A stretch of DNA of 64,000 nucleotides from Methanomassiliicoccales archaeon LGM-DZ1 (lineage in GTDB: Archaea > Thermoplasmatota > Thermoplasmata > Methanomassiliicoccales > Methanomethylophilaceae): positions 62,001 through 126,000 of the forward strand of contig CP115556.1 of the NCBI GenBank assembly GCA_030168595.1, in the 5' to 3' direction. A program made the translations under genes and the position numbers. The first letter of the stretch is position 1. Each line of letters starts with the position of its first letter. Shown here in pieces: positions 3,558 to 62,714 of the stretch. The notes below the pieces were generated by a model. The model was not told the origin of the DNA, made no database searches, and saw only the letters and a list, made by a program, of their open reading frames with translations.

Positions 3558-5108
3558 ATGAATCCCATCGGCGATATGAGTGCCATGGATTCCGAGACAT
3601 ACAAGGCGATGCTTCCGAAGCTCTCGGAGGCGTCGCAGGCATTCTATTCGGGCAAGATGTCCGTCAAGGAGTACAAGGGCATCTCCGGCGGGTTCGGCAC
3701 CTATGCGCAGCGCGGAGCGAAAGAGGGCATGGTCCGCCTCAGACTGGCCGGCGGGCGCATAACGAAGGACAAGATGGCGTTCATCGCCGGCTGCATCAGG
3801 GAGTACAGCCCGTCGCTCGTGCACTTAACGACCTGCCAGTCTGTCCAGCTTCACGGCCTGTCGGGGCCGGCGGCGGTGGAGATCATCGGCAGCGCGGCCG
3901 ACCACGGGATACTCACCTACGGCGGCGGAGGCGATTATCCCAGGAATGTGACCGCGACCCCGCTCTCCGGCGTCATAGAGGCACCGTTCGATGTGCAGCC
4001 GTACGCGGAATGCGCTTCGAGATACCTTCTCAACTACGTCGAGGGGAAGAAGCTCCCCAGGAAGCTGAAGGTGGGATTCTCCAACACCCTCGAGAACATC
4101 ACCGACGCCACCGCCAGGGACCTCGGATTCGTGGCCAGGGCCGACGGGATGTTCGACGTCTACAGCGGAGGCGGCCTGGGGGCGAACCCGAAGCTGGGTC
4201 TCCTCGTATCCGAGGGAGCGGACCCGGAGGACCTCTGCGACTACCTGGCCGCCATGGTCCGCATGTTCATGAAATACGGCAACTACCAGGACCGCTCCAA
4301 GGCCAGGGTGCGCTACATGCGCGATACGCTCGGCGATGACGGTTACATCGAGAAATTCAAAGAGTGCCTCGCCGAGGCGGAGAAGGACGAGACCGTTCCC
4401 AAGGTCTTCCCCGACCACATCCTCTGGTTCAAGAGGGGAGACGGCACCGTCCCCAAGGACCCGAGGGCCCGCCCGCAGGCGAGGAACGGGCTCTATTATG
4501 TGGTGTACCACCCGATAGGCGGAAGGATCGCGCCTTCGAAGTTCGTCGAGATCAGCGAAGCTGTCTCTCCCATCGACGAGGCGGAGGTCCGCGTCGGCCC
4601 GAACGAGACGCTGTACGTCATCAACCTCACCGGCGCCGAGGCCGACAGGATCGCCGCTGTCACCTCAGACGGGTCCCGCACCCTCTTCGAGTCGTCCATG
4701 TCCTGCATCGGGAACACGGTGTGCCAGATCGGCCTCCGCGATTCCTACGGGCTCCTGACCAGGCTCATAGAGATGGAGAGGGCCGAGGGCTTCGCCGACG
4801 GCGTTCTCCCGATGGTGAGAATCTCCGGATGCATTTCGTCATGCACAGCGCAGCAGCTCGGCGCGATAGGCCTGAAGGGCTGCGCGCCGGTGGACGGGGA
4901 GCCTGCGTTCGAGGTCTCCGTGAACGGCTCCCATGTCCGCGGGAAGGAGCGCCTCGGGGACGTTCTCGGTGCCGTGAAGGAGTCCCAGATCCCCGATTTC
5001 TTCAGGGACCTCGGCAGGGCGGTGCAGGCATCCGGGAAGTCCTTCCGCGAATGGTACGGCGGGGACGCCTCCAAGCTGAAGGCCGTCGGCGCGCCCTATC
5101 TGCACTGA
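3558..5108 (+). CDS. Siroheme/[4Fe-4S] sulfite or nitrite reductase family protein
   Basis: The 516-residue protein has the two-repeat plan of ferredoxin-dependent assimilatory sulfite/nitrite reductases. The siroheme-[4Fe-4S] ligands are visible as C-x5-C at about residues 383 and 389 (CIGNTVC) and C-x3-C at about 425 and 429 (GCISSC). The siroheme-binding half-domain shows HLTTCQSVQLHG. No extra ferredoxin or F420-binding domain is fused, unlike Fsr, so the electron donor must be separate. It would reduce sulfite to sulfide or nitrite to ammonia in the cytoplasm. The PAPS-reductase-like, cysE and cysS genes 15 kb away make a sulfur role plausible, but substrate cannot be set from sequence. 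Confidence 0.85.
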   Translation: MNPIGDMSAMDSETYKAMLPKLSEASQAFYSGKMSVKEYKGISGGFGTYAQRGAKEGMVRLRLAGGRITKDKMAFIAGCIREYSPSLVHLTTCQSVQLHGLSGPAAVEIIGSAADHGILTYGGGGDYPRNVTATPLSGVIEAPFDVQPYAECASRYLLNYVEGKKLPRKLKVGFSNTLENITDATARDLGFVARADGMFDVYSGGGLGANPKLGLLVSEGADPEDLCDYLAAMVRMFMKYGNYQDRSKARVRYMRDTLGDDGYIEKFKECLAEAEKDETVPKVFPDHILWFKRGDGTVPKDPRARPQARNGLYYVVYHPIGGRIAPSKFVEISEAVSPIDEAEVRVGPNETLYVINLTGAEADRIAAVTSDGSRTLFESSMSCIGNTVCQIGLRDSYGLLTRLIEMERAEGFADGVLPMVRISGCISSCTAQQLGAIGLKGCAPVDGEPAFEVSVNGSHVRGKERLGDVLGAVKESQIPDFFRDLGRAVQASGKSFREWYGGDASKLKAVGAPYLH

Positions 5109-5199: not shown

Positions 5200-6885
5200 A
5201 TGTCAGAGCCCATAGAGGACACCATCAGGAAGCTCGCGCTGCAGAACGCGGTCAATTTCAAGGGCAAGGCCAACCCCAAGGCCATCGCAGGGAAGATCCT
5301 CGGCTCGCACCCCGAGCTGCGCGGGGACGTCGCCGGGCTCAACGAGACCATCGGCGGCATCGTCGCCGATGTCAACGCCATGGCTCCGGAGGCCCAGAGG
5401 AAGGAGCTGGAGGAGACCGCTCCCGAGATGCTCGTGAAGGAGAAGAAGGTCAGGACCTACGAGCTTCCCGACCTGGAGAACGCCGAGAAGGGCAAGACGG
5501 TCATGAGGATCGCCCCCGGGCCCTCCGGCCCGCTGCACATCGGGCACACTAGGGTCTCCGTCCTCAACGACGAGTACACCAAGAGGTACGGCGGCAAGCT
5601 CATCCTCAGGTTCGAGGACACCAACCCCGAGAAGATCGACCCCGAGGCGTACGACACCATCCCGGAGGACCTCGATTGGCTGGGGGTCAGGATAGACCGC
5701 AGCTACATCCAGTCCGACAGGTTCGAGCTCTACTACAAGGTCACTAAGCAACTGATCGAGCAGGGCCACGCCTATGTGTGCACCTGCGATGCGGAGAAAT
5801 GGAGGTCGCTCAAGGAGCAGAAGACGGCCTGCCCCTGCAGGGACCTGCCGGTGAACGAGCAGCTTGAGAGGTACGACAAGCTGATGGAGGGCGCTCCCGG
5901 CTTCGAGGATGCCATCGCCGTCGTGAAGACGGACATCGCCCACCCCAACCCTGCCATCAGGGACTTCGTCGCCCTCAGGGCGGTGGACGCTCCCCACCCC
6001 AGGACCGGGGACAAGTACCGCCTGTACCCCATGATGAACCTCTCCGTGGCCGTGGACGACCACGAGATGGGCATGACCCATGTGATCAGGGGGAAGGACC
6101 ACCTCAACAACACCCTGAGGCAGAAGTACATCTTCGATTACTTCGGCTGGAAGCAGCCCGAGTACATCCACTACGGCCTCGTGCACATACCGGACACGGT
6201 GCTCAAGACCTCTCTCATCAAGGAGAGCATCAGGAAAGGGGAGTACACCGGCTGGGACGATGTCAGGACCGGCACCGTCCGCGCCCTGGCCCGCAGGGGG
6301 ATCAGGCCGGAGGCCATCAGGCGCTACTGGGTCGAGAGCGGCATAAAGTCCGTGGACATCAACTTCTCCTGGGACGGCCTGTACAGCATGAACAGGGACA
6401 TCATCGACCCGATCAGCAGCAGGTACTTCTTCGTCCGCGACCCGGTCCGCTACGACATCGAGGGAGCGCAGGAGATCAAAGGGAAGGCGCCCCTGCTGCC
6501 CGACGACCCCTCCAAGGGCTTCCGCGAGTACGACCTCCAGCCGCCGTTCACCGTCTTCATCACCGAGAAGGACTCGGCGGAGTTCGCGAAGGACAAGAAG
6601 ATCAGGCTGAAGGATCTCTGCAACCTCGATTACTCCACCCCCGCGAGGTTCGCCGGGAACGATGTTTCCGGGGTCCGCGGCGGGAAGATGAAGGCTGTGC
6701 AGTGGGTCTCCAGGAGCTCCGTGCCCTGCGAGGTCCTCATGACCGACGGATCCGTCGCCAAGGGGCTGGTCGAGAACGCCCTCCTCTCCGAGAAGTCCGA
6801 TACCGTCCAGTTCGAGAGGTTCGGCTTCGTCAAGGTGGAGGAGAAGTCCCCCGAGAAGATCGTCTGCGTCTACACCCACGACTGA
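5200..6885 (+). CDS. gltX: Glutamyl-tRNA synthetase, archaeal type
   Basis: This class I aminoacyl-tRNA synthetase of 561 residues charges tRNA with glutamate. An archaeal/eukaryal N-terminal extension of about 100 residues precedes the catalytic fold. The HIGH signature is GPLHIGHTR (about residue 113), followed by LRFEDTNPEK; the KMSKS loop is the diverged LKTSLIKES. The C-terminal anticodon domain is the beta-barrel type shared with GlnRS. Archaeal GluRS often also charges tRNA-Gln for later transamidation, but that is not visible here. Start ATG 5200 is about 27 nt from the TATA box. The gene is followed by a terminator and converges on the DtxR-type gene. Confidence 0.95.
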   Translation: MSEPIEDTIRKLALQNAVNFKGKANPKAIAGKILGSHPELRGDVAGLNETIGGIVADVNAMAPEAQRKELEETAPEMLVKEKKVRTYELPDLENAEKGKTVMRIAPGPSGPLHIGHTRVSVLNDEYTKRYGGKLILRFEDTNPEKIDPEAYDTIPEDLDWLGVRIDRSYIQSDRFELYYKVTKQLIEQGHAYVCTCDAEKWRSLKEQKTACPCRDLPVNEQLERYDKLMEGAPGFEDAIAVVKTDIAHPNPAIRDFVALRAVDAPHPRTGDKYRLYPMMNLSVAVDDHEMGMTHVIRGKDHLNNTLRQKYIFDYFGWKQPEYIHYGLVHIPDTVLKTSLIKESIRKGEYTGWDDVRTGTVRALARRGIRPEAIRRYWVESGIKSVDINFSWDGLYSMNRDIIDPISSRYFFVRDPVRYDIEGAQEIKGKAPLLPDDPSKGFREYDLQPPFTVFITEKDSAEFAKDKKIRLKDLCNLDYSTPARFAGNDVSGVRGGKMKAVQWVSRSSVPCEVLMTDGSVAKGLVENALLSEKSDTVQFERFGFVKVEEKSPEKIVCVYTHD

Positions 6886-14680: not shown

Positions 14681-15670
14681 TCAGGCGTTCTTCACGAATC
14701 CTGCGATCGATGAGCCGTCCGAGAACGTGACCGTCATGTACGTGTACGTTCCGGCGCTCACGGTCTTGTCAGGCTTGGCGCTCGAAGATGCCGGCATCTC
14801 CGAGTAGAATCCCGGGCTGCGGACTTTCACCGAGAACCCTTCGCCGATAACCGCGACGTTCCCGTCGCTGAATGAGGCGGTGCCGAACGAGGTTATCGAT
14901 GAGACGGTGAACGTGTACTCAGTACCGTTCACTGTGAGCACCACATCGGACACGGAGAGGCTGATGCTGCCGGAGTTGGTTATCCCGCTCAGGACGGCCG
15001 TGTACTCGCTCGCCGAGTGGCCCTCCGCAGGGGATATGTCGGTCCCCGCCGCGAACGCCTTGGGGTCGCTGACGATGTTCTCCGGTGCGGAAACGGTGTA
15101 GACGGCGTTCCCGCTCGCGATTGATGCGTTCAGTGTGTTCCATTGGGCGACGTAGTAGCCTGAGGTCTCGTCATAGTCGAAGGTCGTCCCGACGAAGTTC
15201 TTCACGGACACCTTGATCTCCTCGTCGGAGGTCACCGTACCGTCGTCGAGGGCCCCTTTGGCCGCGAACTTCGCATCTCCGAACGCACCGGAGGATATCG
15301 ACGTCACCGATGCCTTCACCGAGAGCGTGTTGATGCTGTACGAATCGGTCCTCAGTTCCAGGGACCGTATCGCCGTGGGTACAGTGGACGACCCTCTGCC
15401 CCTGGAGGCCGTGTCCTGGCCGATCGTGAGCGAGATGTCCGAGGCGTTCAGCTTGGGGTTGGAGGCCAGAGCGTTTTCCAGGTCGTACCCGGTCACTGTG
15501 ACCGTGCGCCCTTCGATCTCCAGCTCCAATCCGTTGGAAACAGTATAGGTCTTCTCGACCGGGGTGTATTTCTCGTCGGCCGCGTATGCTATGCACGCGA
15601 CGATCGCGACCGTGAACACGAGGCAGAGGACCAAGGTGGCCCTCTTGCCGGGCCTGAATTCGAAGCCCAT
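14681..15670 (-). CDS. Exported or membrane-anchored protein of unknown function
   Basis: The 329-residue protein begins with a basic lead (FRPGKRAT) and a hydrophobic segment LVLCLVFTVAIVACIAYAA ending at an AADE site, so it is a signal peptide or anchor. The rest is Ser/Thr/Gly/Val-rich, low in Cys and His, and looks beta-rich, as in archaeal surface or adhesion-like proteins. I recognise no family. It is the last gene of a three-gene minus-strand operon; a GGAGGG site sits just before its ATG, 2 nt after the upstream stop. It may act with the heme-type membrane protein encoded before it, but that is only context. Confidence 0.75.
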   Translation of the reverse strand: MGFEFRPGKRATLVLCLVFTVAIVACIAYAADEKYTPVEKTYTVSNGLELEIEGRTVTVTGYDLENALASNPKLNASDISLTIGQDTASRGRGSSTVPTAIRSLELRTDSYSINTLSVKASVTSISSGAFGDAKFAAKGALDDGTVTSDEEIKVSVKNFVGTTFDYDETSGYYVAQWNTLNASIASGNAVYTVSAPENIVSDPKAFAAGTDISPAEGHSASEYTAVLSGITNSGSISLSVSDVVLTVNGTEYTFTVSSITSFGTASFSDGNVAVIGEGFSVKVRSPGFYSEMPASSSAKPDKTVSAGTYTYMTVTFSDGSSIAGFVKNA

Positions 15671-15672
15671 GC

Positions 15673-16461
15673 TCAGGTCCCTCCTGCATCGCAGTATGCC
15701 GGACCCTTATCGGTGTCCTCATCCTCGATCATCATGTCGCGCTCGACCTTCTTCGCCGGATGCAGCCACTGGATCAGGTATTTCGCTATGCGGAACACGA
15801 AGTAGGAGACCCAGATCCACAGGTAGCACCTGAGGGCGTCGGCGTGCCTCCCGGTGAGGAAGTCCGAGATCCCTCCGTCGAAGTTGCCGTAGAGGCCGAC
15901 GATGTGCAGCAGGAGCCCGAAGTAGAACAGGTAGGAGAAGTACTGCAGCCTCTGCCAGTTCTTCGGCTTCATGTGCCTCCTGACGAAGTACAGCGAGGTC
16001 AGCATCAGGGGGACCATCAGCACGAACAGGAGGATGGTCGCTATGGTGGCGATGTTCCTTCCGGTGGAGAGCTCCCCGTTGAAGAACATGATGAAGTAGT
16101 TGGCGTAGTAGAAGATCTCCCCGAAGGAGATTATGCATCCGAGGACCGAGAGCTCGGCCCTGACGGATTTCAGGCGCTTGGTGAGGTCCTATTTGGACGG
16201 CATGACGCCGACGTAGGCGACGACGGCGAAGAGGGCCTCCGCCATGATGCCCATGCAGAAGAAGGATCTCAGGGCATTGCGGCCTTCGCTCAGCCCGAAG
16301 GCGAGCGAATAATCGAAGTATGTGGGGCCTACGAAGTACGCCTCGACGATGATCATCGCCGAATAGAGGATGATGCGGTACTTCTTCACCGTGTTCGGGA
16401 AGGCGATCAGCACCATCGCGAAGAATATGGCGCATAAGAGCGCTAATTCGATCGTCTGCAT
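15673..16461 (-). CDS. Ferric-reductase-like transmembrane protein with in-frame TAG at codon 91
   Basis: From ATG 16461 the frame gives 90 residues of membrane protein ending VGVMPSK, then TAG (16191-16189), then continues open with DLTKRLKSVRAELSVLG and further helices to TGA at 15673: 262 residues in one frame. Both halves together form a six-helix membrane protein similar to ferric-reductase-like/MsrQ-type domains (RRHMKPKNWQRLQYFSYLFY). No start codon follows the TAG until ATG 16089, 34 codons later, within a hydrophobic segment, so two separate genes are unlikely. The amber codon falls in a charged loop between helices. Readthrough or pyrrolysine insertion is inferred; a nonsense mutation is the alternative. 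Confidence 0.75.
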
Positions 16462-60947: not shown

Positions 60948-62563
60948 TGCTGACCGAGCTCGAGGAGAAGGACAGCCCCGAGGGGTACAGGAGGAAGATA
61001 GAGAGGCTCCGCAGCGCCCTGGAAAACTCGGACGCCGTCGTCATCGGCGGAGGTGCCGGCCTCTCGGCTTCCGCCGGGTTCGACTACGGAGGGAAACGCT
61101 TCGAAGATAACTTCTCGGATTTCAGGGCCAAGTACGGCATCCGCGACATGTACAGCGGCGGGTTCTACCCGTTCCCGACGCAGGAGGAGTACTGGGCCTG
61201 GTGGAGCCGCTTCATTTGCATCAACCGTTACGACACCGCTCCCGGGAAGCCGTACACCGACCTCCTGGAACTGGTGAAAGGCAGGGACTACTTCGTCCTG
61301 ACCACCAATGTGGACCACCAGTTCCAGCTGGCCGGTTTCGATAAGAAGAGGCTGTTCTACACCCAGGGCGACTATGGGCTCTTCCAGTGCAGCGTCCCCT
61401 GCACGCAGGAGACGTACGATGACGAGGCCGCCGTGCGCAGGATGGCCGCCGAGCAGAAGGACATGCGCATACCCTCGGAGCTCATCCCCCGCTGTCCCAG
61501 ATGCGGGAGGCGGATGGTCCCCAATCTCCGCGTCGACGGCAGGTTCGTGCAGGACAGAGGGTGGTACGAGGCATCCGGCAGATATCGTGAATTCCTAGAC
61601 AGGACCGACGGCAGGCGCGTCCTCTTCATGGAACTGGGCGTCGGCGGGAACACGCCCGGGATAATCAAGATCCCGTTCCTGAAGATGGCCGCGGACAACA
61701 GCAATGCGGTATACTCCTGCGTGAACCTCGGGGAGGCGTACACCGGGAAGGGGATCGAGGAGAGGTCCATCATCCTGAACGCCGACATCGGTGCGGTCCT
61801 CCGCGACGTCCTCGCATCGGAGCGACGGAAATACCATTTACCGTGCCTCCCATGGGAGAGGCGTGAAGGATTGGTTCGGGACGGAGGACGGAGGCGGCAC
61901 CCGCCTGCCGGAGTTCCAGAACAGGGACAGGTGGGACGGCGTCTACGAGACGGTGACCTGCAGGCGCGCCCTCTCGCCCTCCGGGCTCCCCGGGATAGAC
62001 TACGCGCTCAACCCCTACGGGGGCTGCGAGCACGGCTGCGTCTACTGCTACGCCCCCGAGGTCACCCATTCGCCCTGGGACACCTGGAGGGTGGTCAGGG
62101 TGAGGGTCAACATAGCGGACCGCCTGGCCGCCGAGCTCCCGGGGCTCAGCGGAACGGTGGGGATCGGCACGGTCACCGATCCGTACCAGGGGGCGGAGGC
62201 GAGGTTCATGCTGACGAGGAGATGCCTCGAGGTCCTGAGCGCCAGGAGGTTCCCTGTCCATGTGCACACCAAATCCGACCTGGTCCTCAGGGACACCGAC
62301 CTGCTCTCCGGGATGAAGTGCATCGTCGGGGTGACGGTCACCGGACTGGACGAGAGGGGCTCGAAGATCCTCGAACCGGGGGCTCCTATGCCGGAGGCCC
62401 GCCTGAGGGCGATAAAAAGGCTCTCCGACGCCGGCATCCGCGTCTATGCGCTCATAGGCCCCGTCCTGGACCGCCTGGAGGGTCAGGAGGAGGAGTTCTG
62501 CGATGCAGTGGCCGCCGCCGGGGCGAAGGAGGCGGTGCTGGACCGCCTCAATCCCAGGACTGA
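60944..62563 (+). CDS. Class M sirtuin (SirTM) protein ADP-ribosyltransferase, run-on frame
   Basis: The sirtuin spans about residues 1-298 (to nt about 61838): NAD site VVIGGGAGLSASAGFDYGG, TTNVDHQF, TQGDYGLFQC where Gln replaces the catalytic His as in SirTM, the zinc ribbon IPRCPRCG, MELGVGGNTPGIIK, and NADIGAVLRDVL. SirTM transfers ADP-ribose from NAD to lipoylated carriers. The frame then continues to 62563 across the next gene in a different frame; that tail is Arg/Gly/Pro-rich and not native. A one-base shift would end it at the TGA at 61864-61866, overlapping the next GTG start. Overlaps the macrodomain gene by 4 bp. Confidence 0.8.
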   Translation: MMLTELEEKDSPEGYRRKIERLRSALENSDAVVIGGGAGLSASAGFDYGGKRFEDNFSDFRAKYGIRDMYSGGFYPFPTQEEYWAWWSRFICINRYDTAPGKPYTDLLELVKGRDYFVLTTNVDHQFQLAGFDKKRLFYTQGDYGLFQCSVPCTQETYDDEAAVRRMAAEQKDMRIPSELIPRCPRCGRRMVPNLRVDGRFVQDRGWYEASGRYREFLDRTDGRRVLFMELGVGGNTPGIIKIPFLKMAADNSNAVYSCVNLGEAYTGKGIEERSIILNADIGAVLRDVLASERRKYHLPCLPWERREGLVRDGGRRRHPPAGVPEQGQVGRRLRDGDLQARPLALRAPRDRLRAQPLRGLRARLRLLLRPRGHPFALGHLEGGQGEGQHSGPPGRRAPGAQRNGGDRHGHRSVPGGGGEVHADEEMPRGPERQEVPCPCAHQIRPGPQGHRPALRDEVHRRGDGHRTGREGLEDPRTGGSYAGGPPEGDKKALRRRHPRLCAHRPRPGPPGGSGGGVLRCSGRRRGEGGGAGPPQSQD

Positions 62564-62714
62564 GCTCTCCGCCCGCCTGGCCAGGATGGGCGTGTCCGGC
62601 TCCCCTGCGGCCCTCGGGAAGATAAGGGACGGGCTGGAGGCCCGCGGCATCTCCGTCAGCGACGCCTTCCAGCGCTCCCGCCGATCCCCGTGTTATCAAC
62701 CGGGGGTTACATAG
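61863..62714 (+). CDS. SPL-type radical SAM protein
   Basis: The native start is likely GTG 61863 (MKDWFGTEDGGG), preceded by GGGAGAGG; the longer frame from 61791 is antecedent noise. The 283-residue protein has the radical SAM motif CEHGCVYCYA and GIGTVTDPYQGAE and TKSDLVLRDTDLL, the pattern of SPL-family and Rv2578c-like proteins. No photolyase context exists; role unknown. It follows the sirtuin gene and may be cotranscribed with the macrodomain-SirTM pair. Confidence 0.82.
   Translation: MKDWFGTEDGGGTRLPEFQNRDRWDGVYETVTCRRALSPSGLPGIDYALNPYGGCEHGCVYCYAPEVTHSPWDTWRVVRVRVNIADRLAAELPGLSGTVGIGTVTDPYQGAEARFMLTRRCLEVLSARRFPVHVHTKSDLVLRDTDLLSGMKCIVGVTVTGLDERGSKILEPGAPMPEARLRAIKRLSDAGIRVYALIGPVLDRLEGQEEEFCDAVAAAGAKEAVLDRLNPRTELSARLARMGVSGSPAALGKIRDGLEARGISVSDAFQRSRRSPCYQPGVT

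What the first reader, a model, noticed from the sequence alone, without database searches (positions are those of the whole stretch)
16189..16191. In-frame amber codon inside an intact ferric-reductase-like membrane gene
Codon 91 of a 262-codon frame (16461-15673, minus) is TAG, with clean coding sequence on both sides and no start for 34 codons after it. Methanomassiliicoccales-type methanogens have the pyrrolysine system, where TAG can be read. The codon lies in a charged loop (PSK-TAG-DLTKR) outside methylamine methyltransferases, so a novel Pyl-containing or readthrough membrane protein is possible.
Basis: partly seen in the sequence, partly recalled or inferred. Interest (0 to 1): 0.72.

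Follow-up and report, generated by a model that had tools for sequence, protein, structure and literature searches.

The report
Amber codon read as pyrrolysine, probably
In a gut methane-making archaeon, one strain has a tryptophan codon turned into the 'stop' codon TAG inside a membrane-protein gene; because this species appears to read TAG as the 22nd amino acid (pyrrolysine) in many genes, the protein is probably still made full length, one more case of a known phenomenon.

Summary
Window 16191-16189 (minus) is an in-frame TAG at codon 91 of an otherwise intact 262-codon membrane-protein frame (16461-15673), with strong coding signal on both sides. The genome (complete, 1.77 Mb; same species as Ca. 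Methanomethylophilus sp. 1R26) carries pylT, pylS, pylC, pylD and pylB. 1R26 has TGG (Trp) at this codon in a 98%-identical protein; more distant relatives have Trp or His, none TAG. So this is a strain-specific Trp-to-TAG change at a variable loop residue. Half of the genome was sampled: it holds 12 in-frame TAGs in 11 genes besides the methylamine methyltransferases, including single-copy FBP aldolase/phosphatase and TiaS. Four of them (TiaS, GT2, PCC, TetR) are shared with 1R26. TAG rarely ends a gene. Best explanation: TAG works as a sense codon (pyrrolysine) and this protein carries Pyl91 by near-neutral drift. No special role of the residue is supported; the ferric-reductase label is below Pfam's cut-off. 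The phenomenon was reported for M. alvus (2014, 16 genes) and ISO4-H5 (2016, 46 genes): a new member of a known kind. Decoding itself was not observed; a base error at this site cannot be excluded.

The parts
16189..16191 (-). In-frame TAG, codon 91; TGG (Trp) in strain 1R26
15673..16461 (-). Membrane-protein gene of 262 codons containing the TAG, ending in TGA; uncharacterised, weak Ferric_reduct similarity
16087..16089 (-). First possible start (ATG) after the TAG, 34 codons downstream; re-initiation here would give only 138 residues
16466..16792 (-). Upstream 108-aa membrane gene, same strand, likely same transcription unit
   Evidence: same order in 1R26
14681..15670 (-). Downstream 329-aa secreted-like gene, starts 2 bases after the TGA
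   Evidence: same order in 1R26

Best explanation
A single G-to-A change turned Trp codon 91 (TGG) into TAG in this strain of a Methanomethylophilus species. tRNA-Pyl (anticodon CUA), charged by PylS with pyrrolysine made by PylBCD, reads TAG as a sense codon in this species. The ribosome therefore inserts pyrrolysine at position 91 and makes the full-length membrane protein. The residue lies in a loop between two predicted helices where relatives have Trp or His, so the replacement is probably close to neutral rather than selected. Shown: the TAG, the TGG in the sister strain, the pyl genes, and many other in-frame TAGs, four of them shared by two strains. Inferred: actual decoding as Pyl, its efficiency, and function of the product.
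For: Complete pyl set: tRNA-like gene with CTCTAAA loop beside pylS, pylC, pylD, pylB at 663 kb. mttB with internal TAG matches TIGR02369 over its whole length. Twelve other-than-methyltransferase in-frame TAGs in 883 kb, some inside one continuous Pfam domain. Single-copy FBPase and TiaS carry TAG. TAGs in TiaS, GT2, PCC and TetR are at the same codon in 1R26, GT2 and PCC across 95 and 55 substitutions without gap or other stop. TAG seldom terminates genes. Here: no frameshift, no second stop, 98% identity to an intact gene, few nonsynonymous changes.
Against: This particular TAG is seen in one assembly only. No proteomic or ribosome data. The gene is patchy (12 of 102 family genomes), so its loss might be tolerated. 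TAG is about 64% of expected nonsense outcomes from this codon usage, so counts alone do not prove recoding. One canonical aRF1 is present, so termination may compete.
Confidence: 0.75

Rival explanations
1. It is a fresh nonsense mutation. Termination at TAG dominates, a 90-residue fragment is made, and the gene is on the way to becoming a pseudogene.
For: Strain specific; gene patchy in the family; TAG is the commonest nonsense product in this codon usage; a canonical aRF1 is present.
Against: Complete pyl system; TAGs in single-copy core genes and TAGs kept over long divergence; no other lesion in the gene.
Confidence: 0.12
2. It is a base-calling or assembly error; the real codon is TGG as in 1R26.
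For: Single-base difference, seen in one assembly only; reads could not be inspected.
Against: No excess of frameshifts or of in-frame TGA/TAA in compared genes; other TAGs of this assembly recur in the independent 1R26 assembly; the FBPase TAG differs from ATG by two bases, which is unlikely as an error.
Confidence: 0.1
3. Pyl91 has been selected for a specific function in this membrane protein (for example in binding or redox chemistry).
For: None beyond the presence of the codon.
Against: The nearest strain has Trp, and the other relatives have Trp or His; no relative has TAG. The residue is in a loop of a low-confidence model, between helices 61-84 and 92-128.
Confidence: 0.03

Closest known systems
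Predicted Pyl-containing proteins of 'Ca. Methanomethylophilus alvus' (Borrel et al. 2014, PMC4153887)
   Same: In-frame TAG in ordinary genes of a Methanomassiliicoccales methanogen with pylTSBCD, absent from homologues in other species; very low use of TAG as a stop
   Different: This membrane protein is not evidently in their list of 16 (one 'transporter family protein' there is 289 aa; not compared); here the ancestral codon is known from a sister strain
46 amber-containing genes of methanogenic archaeon ISO4-H5 (PMC5011839)
   Same: Same order, same recoding, many hypothetical proteins and one adhesin-like protein with TAG
   Different: Other species; gene lists not compared
Pyl in tRNA-His guanylyltransferase of Methanosarcina by neutral evolution (Heinemann et al. 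2009, cited in PMC4153887)
   Same: Pyl at a non-catalytic, non-conserved position thought to have arisen neutrally
   Different: Different gene and order; not read here beyond the citation
MtmB/MtbB/MttB methylamine methyltransferases
   Same: TAG decoded as Pyl by the same machinery
   Different: There TAG is conserved across species and catalytic (established knowledge); here it is absent from all relatives

Membership tests
Incidental Pyl-containing proteins of Pyl-decoding archaea | Genome encodes pylT, pylS and pylBCD | tested here: met
   (pylT by loop sequence and position only)
Incidental Pyl-containing proteins of Pyl-decoding archaea | In-frame TAG with homology continuing across it | tested here: met
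Incidental Pyl-containing proteins of Pyl-decoding archaea | Pyl present in the protein | not testable with these tools
   needs mass spectrometry
Methylamine methyltransferases with catalytic Pyl | TAG conserved among homologues; MtmB/MtbB/MttB fold | tested here: not met
   no homologue has TAG; no such family match
Ferric_reduct (PF01794) | Score above the curated cut-off | tested here: not met
   17.2 bits against 28
Ferric_reduct (PF01794) | Matching fold with haem-binding helices | tested here: inconclusive
   model pLDDT 41, too poor for a fold search

The most novel reading that the evidence does not exclude
TAG is effectively reassigned to pyrrolysine throughout this species, so core enzymes (FBP aldolase/phosphatase, TiaS) depend on Pyl and the amino acid is indispensable whatever the substrate; in sister strain 1R26 even PylC, which makes Pyl, contains a TAG, giving a self-dependent loop.
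Probability: 0.5. Interest if true: 0.55.

Novelty: new member of a known kind. Interest (0 to 1): 0.32.

Why it matters
It adds a clear case, with the sister strain's codon known, of how a recoded stop codon spreads by drift in a gut methanogen. It also warns that gene callers split or lose such genes. The wider pattern, TAG in single-copy core genes and shared between strains, suggests that pyrrolysine is needed for general growth in this species and not only for methylamine use.

Tried and rejected
ARAGORN found no tRNA in the window or the pyl region, so pylT was found by its CTCTAAA anticodon loop and position. A first scan without frame competition gave many antisense shadows rich in TAG and was discarded. 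My post-hoc criterion (next start more than 4 codons away) failed in the second sample: it let in three TGA gene junctions and missed real TAGs, so genes were judged by frame inspection plus family or orthologue matches. A TAG/TGA/TAA count as proof of recoding was rejected as weak, because TAG is about 64% of expected nonsense outcomes. AlphaFold with two sequences gave pLDDT 41, so no fold search was run. One Sel1-repeat-like TAA junction at genome 174208 stayed unresolved. Searches for a paper on an all-TAG 'Pyl code' in archaea gave none in the held library.

Full report
Observation. Window 16461-15673 (minus) translates to 262 residues interrupted once, at codon 91, by TAG (16191-16189), and ends in TGA. 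The next ATG/GTG/TTG is 34 codons downstream, so re-initiation would give at most 138 residues and would lose the segment DLTKRLKSVRAELSVLGC, well conserved among the nearer relatives. Codon-usage scoring gives strong coding signal on both sides and poor scores in all competing frames. The gene sits between a 108-aa and a 329-aa gene on the same strand with almost no spacing, in the same order in strain 1R26.

Codon in relatives. Ca. Methanomethylophilus sp. 1R26 (L004/L007; aligned stretches of the two genomes are about 97% identical) has the same protein at 98% identity, with TGG at codon 91. Seven more distant relatives covering the site have TGG or CAC (Trp or His), and none has TAG. The position is variable and lies in a loop between predicted helices 61-84 and 92-128 of a low-confidence model. 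The TAG state therefore most likely arose by one G-to-A change on the lineage of this strain. Beyond the start codon and codon 91, the strains differ by 9 synonymous and 3 nonsynonymous changes; after the TAG the counts are 5 and 2. There is no sign of decay, but most of that divergence may predate the TAG.

Decoding machinery. The genome (one contig, 1,768,094 bases, 99.7% complete) has a CUA-anticodon tRNA-like gene at about 1,703,697-1,703,767, followed within about 30 bases by pylS and then pylC and pylD. pylB lies at 663 kb. PylS here is the short 275-residue form; a shortened synthetase is reported for the order (PMC3941956). An mttB with internal TAG lies in the same region and matches TIGR02369 over its whole length; two further methyltransferase-like genes there also carry TAG (identity as mtmB and mtbB by inspection only).

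Is TAG a sense codon genome-wide? I sampled 883 kb in two blocks (plus the window and the pyl region). Besides the methyltransferases, 12 TAGs in 11 genes lie inside continuing coding frames. Genome positions: 48782 (FBP aldolase/phosphatase, codon 28), 78191 (this gene), 156717 and 157146 (3,984-codon adhesin-like gene), 419681 (transposase), 437254 (PHP-domain protein), 453528 (AAA helicase-like), 812985 (TetR-like), 825093 (PCC domain), 936172 (754-codon protein), 1047770 (GT2 glycosyltransferase) and 1115930 (TiaS, codon 69). One Pfam domain spans the TAG in FBPase, TiaS, PCC, GT2 and the helicase. FBPase and TiaS are single copy; that TiaS is needed for AUA decoding in archaea is established knowledge, not tested here. 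In-frame TGA and TAA in these samples look like junctions with the start of the next gene or have weak downstream signal, with one unresolved TAA (174208).

Strain comparison. Four of these TAGs (TiaS, GT2, PCC, TetR) are present at the same codon in the separately assembled 1R26. GT2 and PCC have 95 and 55 substitutions between strains, with no gap and no other stop. Other species have Lys or Gln at the TiaS codon. Others are not shared: FBPase TAG against ATG in 1R26, the 754-codon protein TAG against CGG, this gene TAG against TGG, and in the other direction 1R26 TAGs in pylC and in the orthologue of genome 28550-30493. FBPase has no internal stop in any of the other 90 genomes of the family that hold it. 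The pattern is a slow, continuing gain of TAG codons in ordinary genes. TAG rarely terminates: 1 of 42 genes called in the window (that gene has a backup TAA 8 codons later) and about 1-3 of some 340 in the first sample once in-frame cases are set aside.

Caveat on counting. From this codon usage about 64% of single-base nonsense changes give TAG, so 12 TAG against none or one TGA/TAA is suggestive, not decisive. The stronger arguments are the single-copy core genes and the TAGs shared across diverged strains.

Mechanism. Most likely tRNA-Pyl inserts pyrrolysine at codon 91 and the full membrane protein is made. Competition with the release factor may leave some truncated product; one aRF1 with an intact NIKS motif is present. 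Nothing suggests that Pyl91 was selected for a function. The rivals are a nonsense mutation in a dispensable, patchily distributed gene (12 of 102 genomes) and a base error in this assembly; neither can be fully excluded for this single site.

Known context. Borrel et al. 2014 (PMC4153887) listed 16 non-methyltransferase genes with TAG in Ca. M. alvus, noted that TAG ends only 1.6% of its genes, and proposed that an in-frame amber would be a stable mutation under suppression. ISO4-H5 has 46 amber-containing genes (PMC5011839). From memory only, a recent report proposes that some archaea read all TAGs as Pyl; it was not found in the held library. The finding is therefore a new member of a known kind.

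Family label. PF01794 matches residues 96-183 at E 0.0055 and 17.2 bits, below the 28-bit cut-off. The protein is best called an uncharacterised multi-helix membrane protein.

Noticed in passing
L053:11315 (1R26 contig; G012:C11:11000-12109): pylC of strain 1R26, the enzyme that helps make pyrrolysine, itself has an in-frame TAG (GAG in this genome); of the pylC genes listed in the family it is the only one with an internal stop. If real, making Pyl needs Pyl.
   Followed up: partly
L126:15726-17066 and L132: Single-copy tiaS carries TAG at codon 69 in both this genome and 1R26; other species have Lys or Gln.
   Followed up: yes
L025:7724-8863 (-): Single-copy FBP aldolase/phosphatase carries TAG at codon 28; 1R26 has ATG, two bases away, and no other family genome has a stop in this gene.
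   Followed up: yes
L027:2152-14106 (+): A 3,984-codon adhesin-like gene with two in-frame TAGs (codons 2856 and 2999) and no other stop.
   Followed up: partly
L050:13397-13949 (1R26): The 1R26 orthologue of genome 28550-30493 (about 90% identical, no gaps) holds three TAG codons and no other stop in the alignment.
   Followed up: partly
G000:C1:663176-664183 against L018:8698-11703: pylB lies about 1 Mb away from pylT-pylS-pylC-pylD, although a paper on the order describes a conserved pyl operon that includes pylB.
   Followed up: no
L018:4447-5736: An identical 156-aa ORF appears twice, 819 bases apart (4447-4917 and 5266-5736), pointing to a recent tandem duplication at the end of a transporter-like gene.
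   Followed up: no
L018:8020-8690; L053:8441-9115: A broken methyltransferase remnant lies between a methyltransferase gene and pylT in this strain, where 1R26 seems to keep a second TAG-containing copy.
   Followed up: no
window 61791-62714 (+): The one convincing TAG terminator in the window (radical-SAM-like gene by inspection); it has a backup TAA 8 codons later, just before a thermosome-like gene.
   Followed up: no
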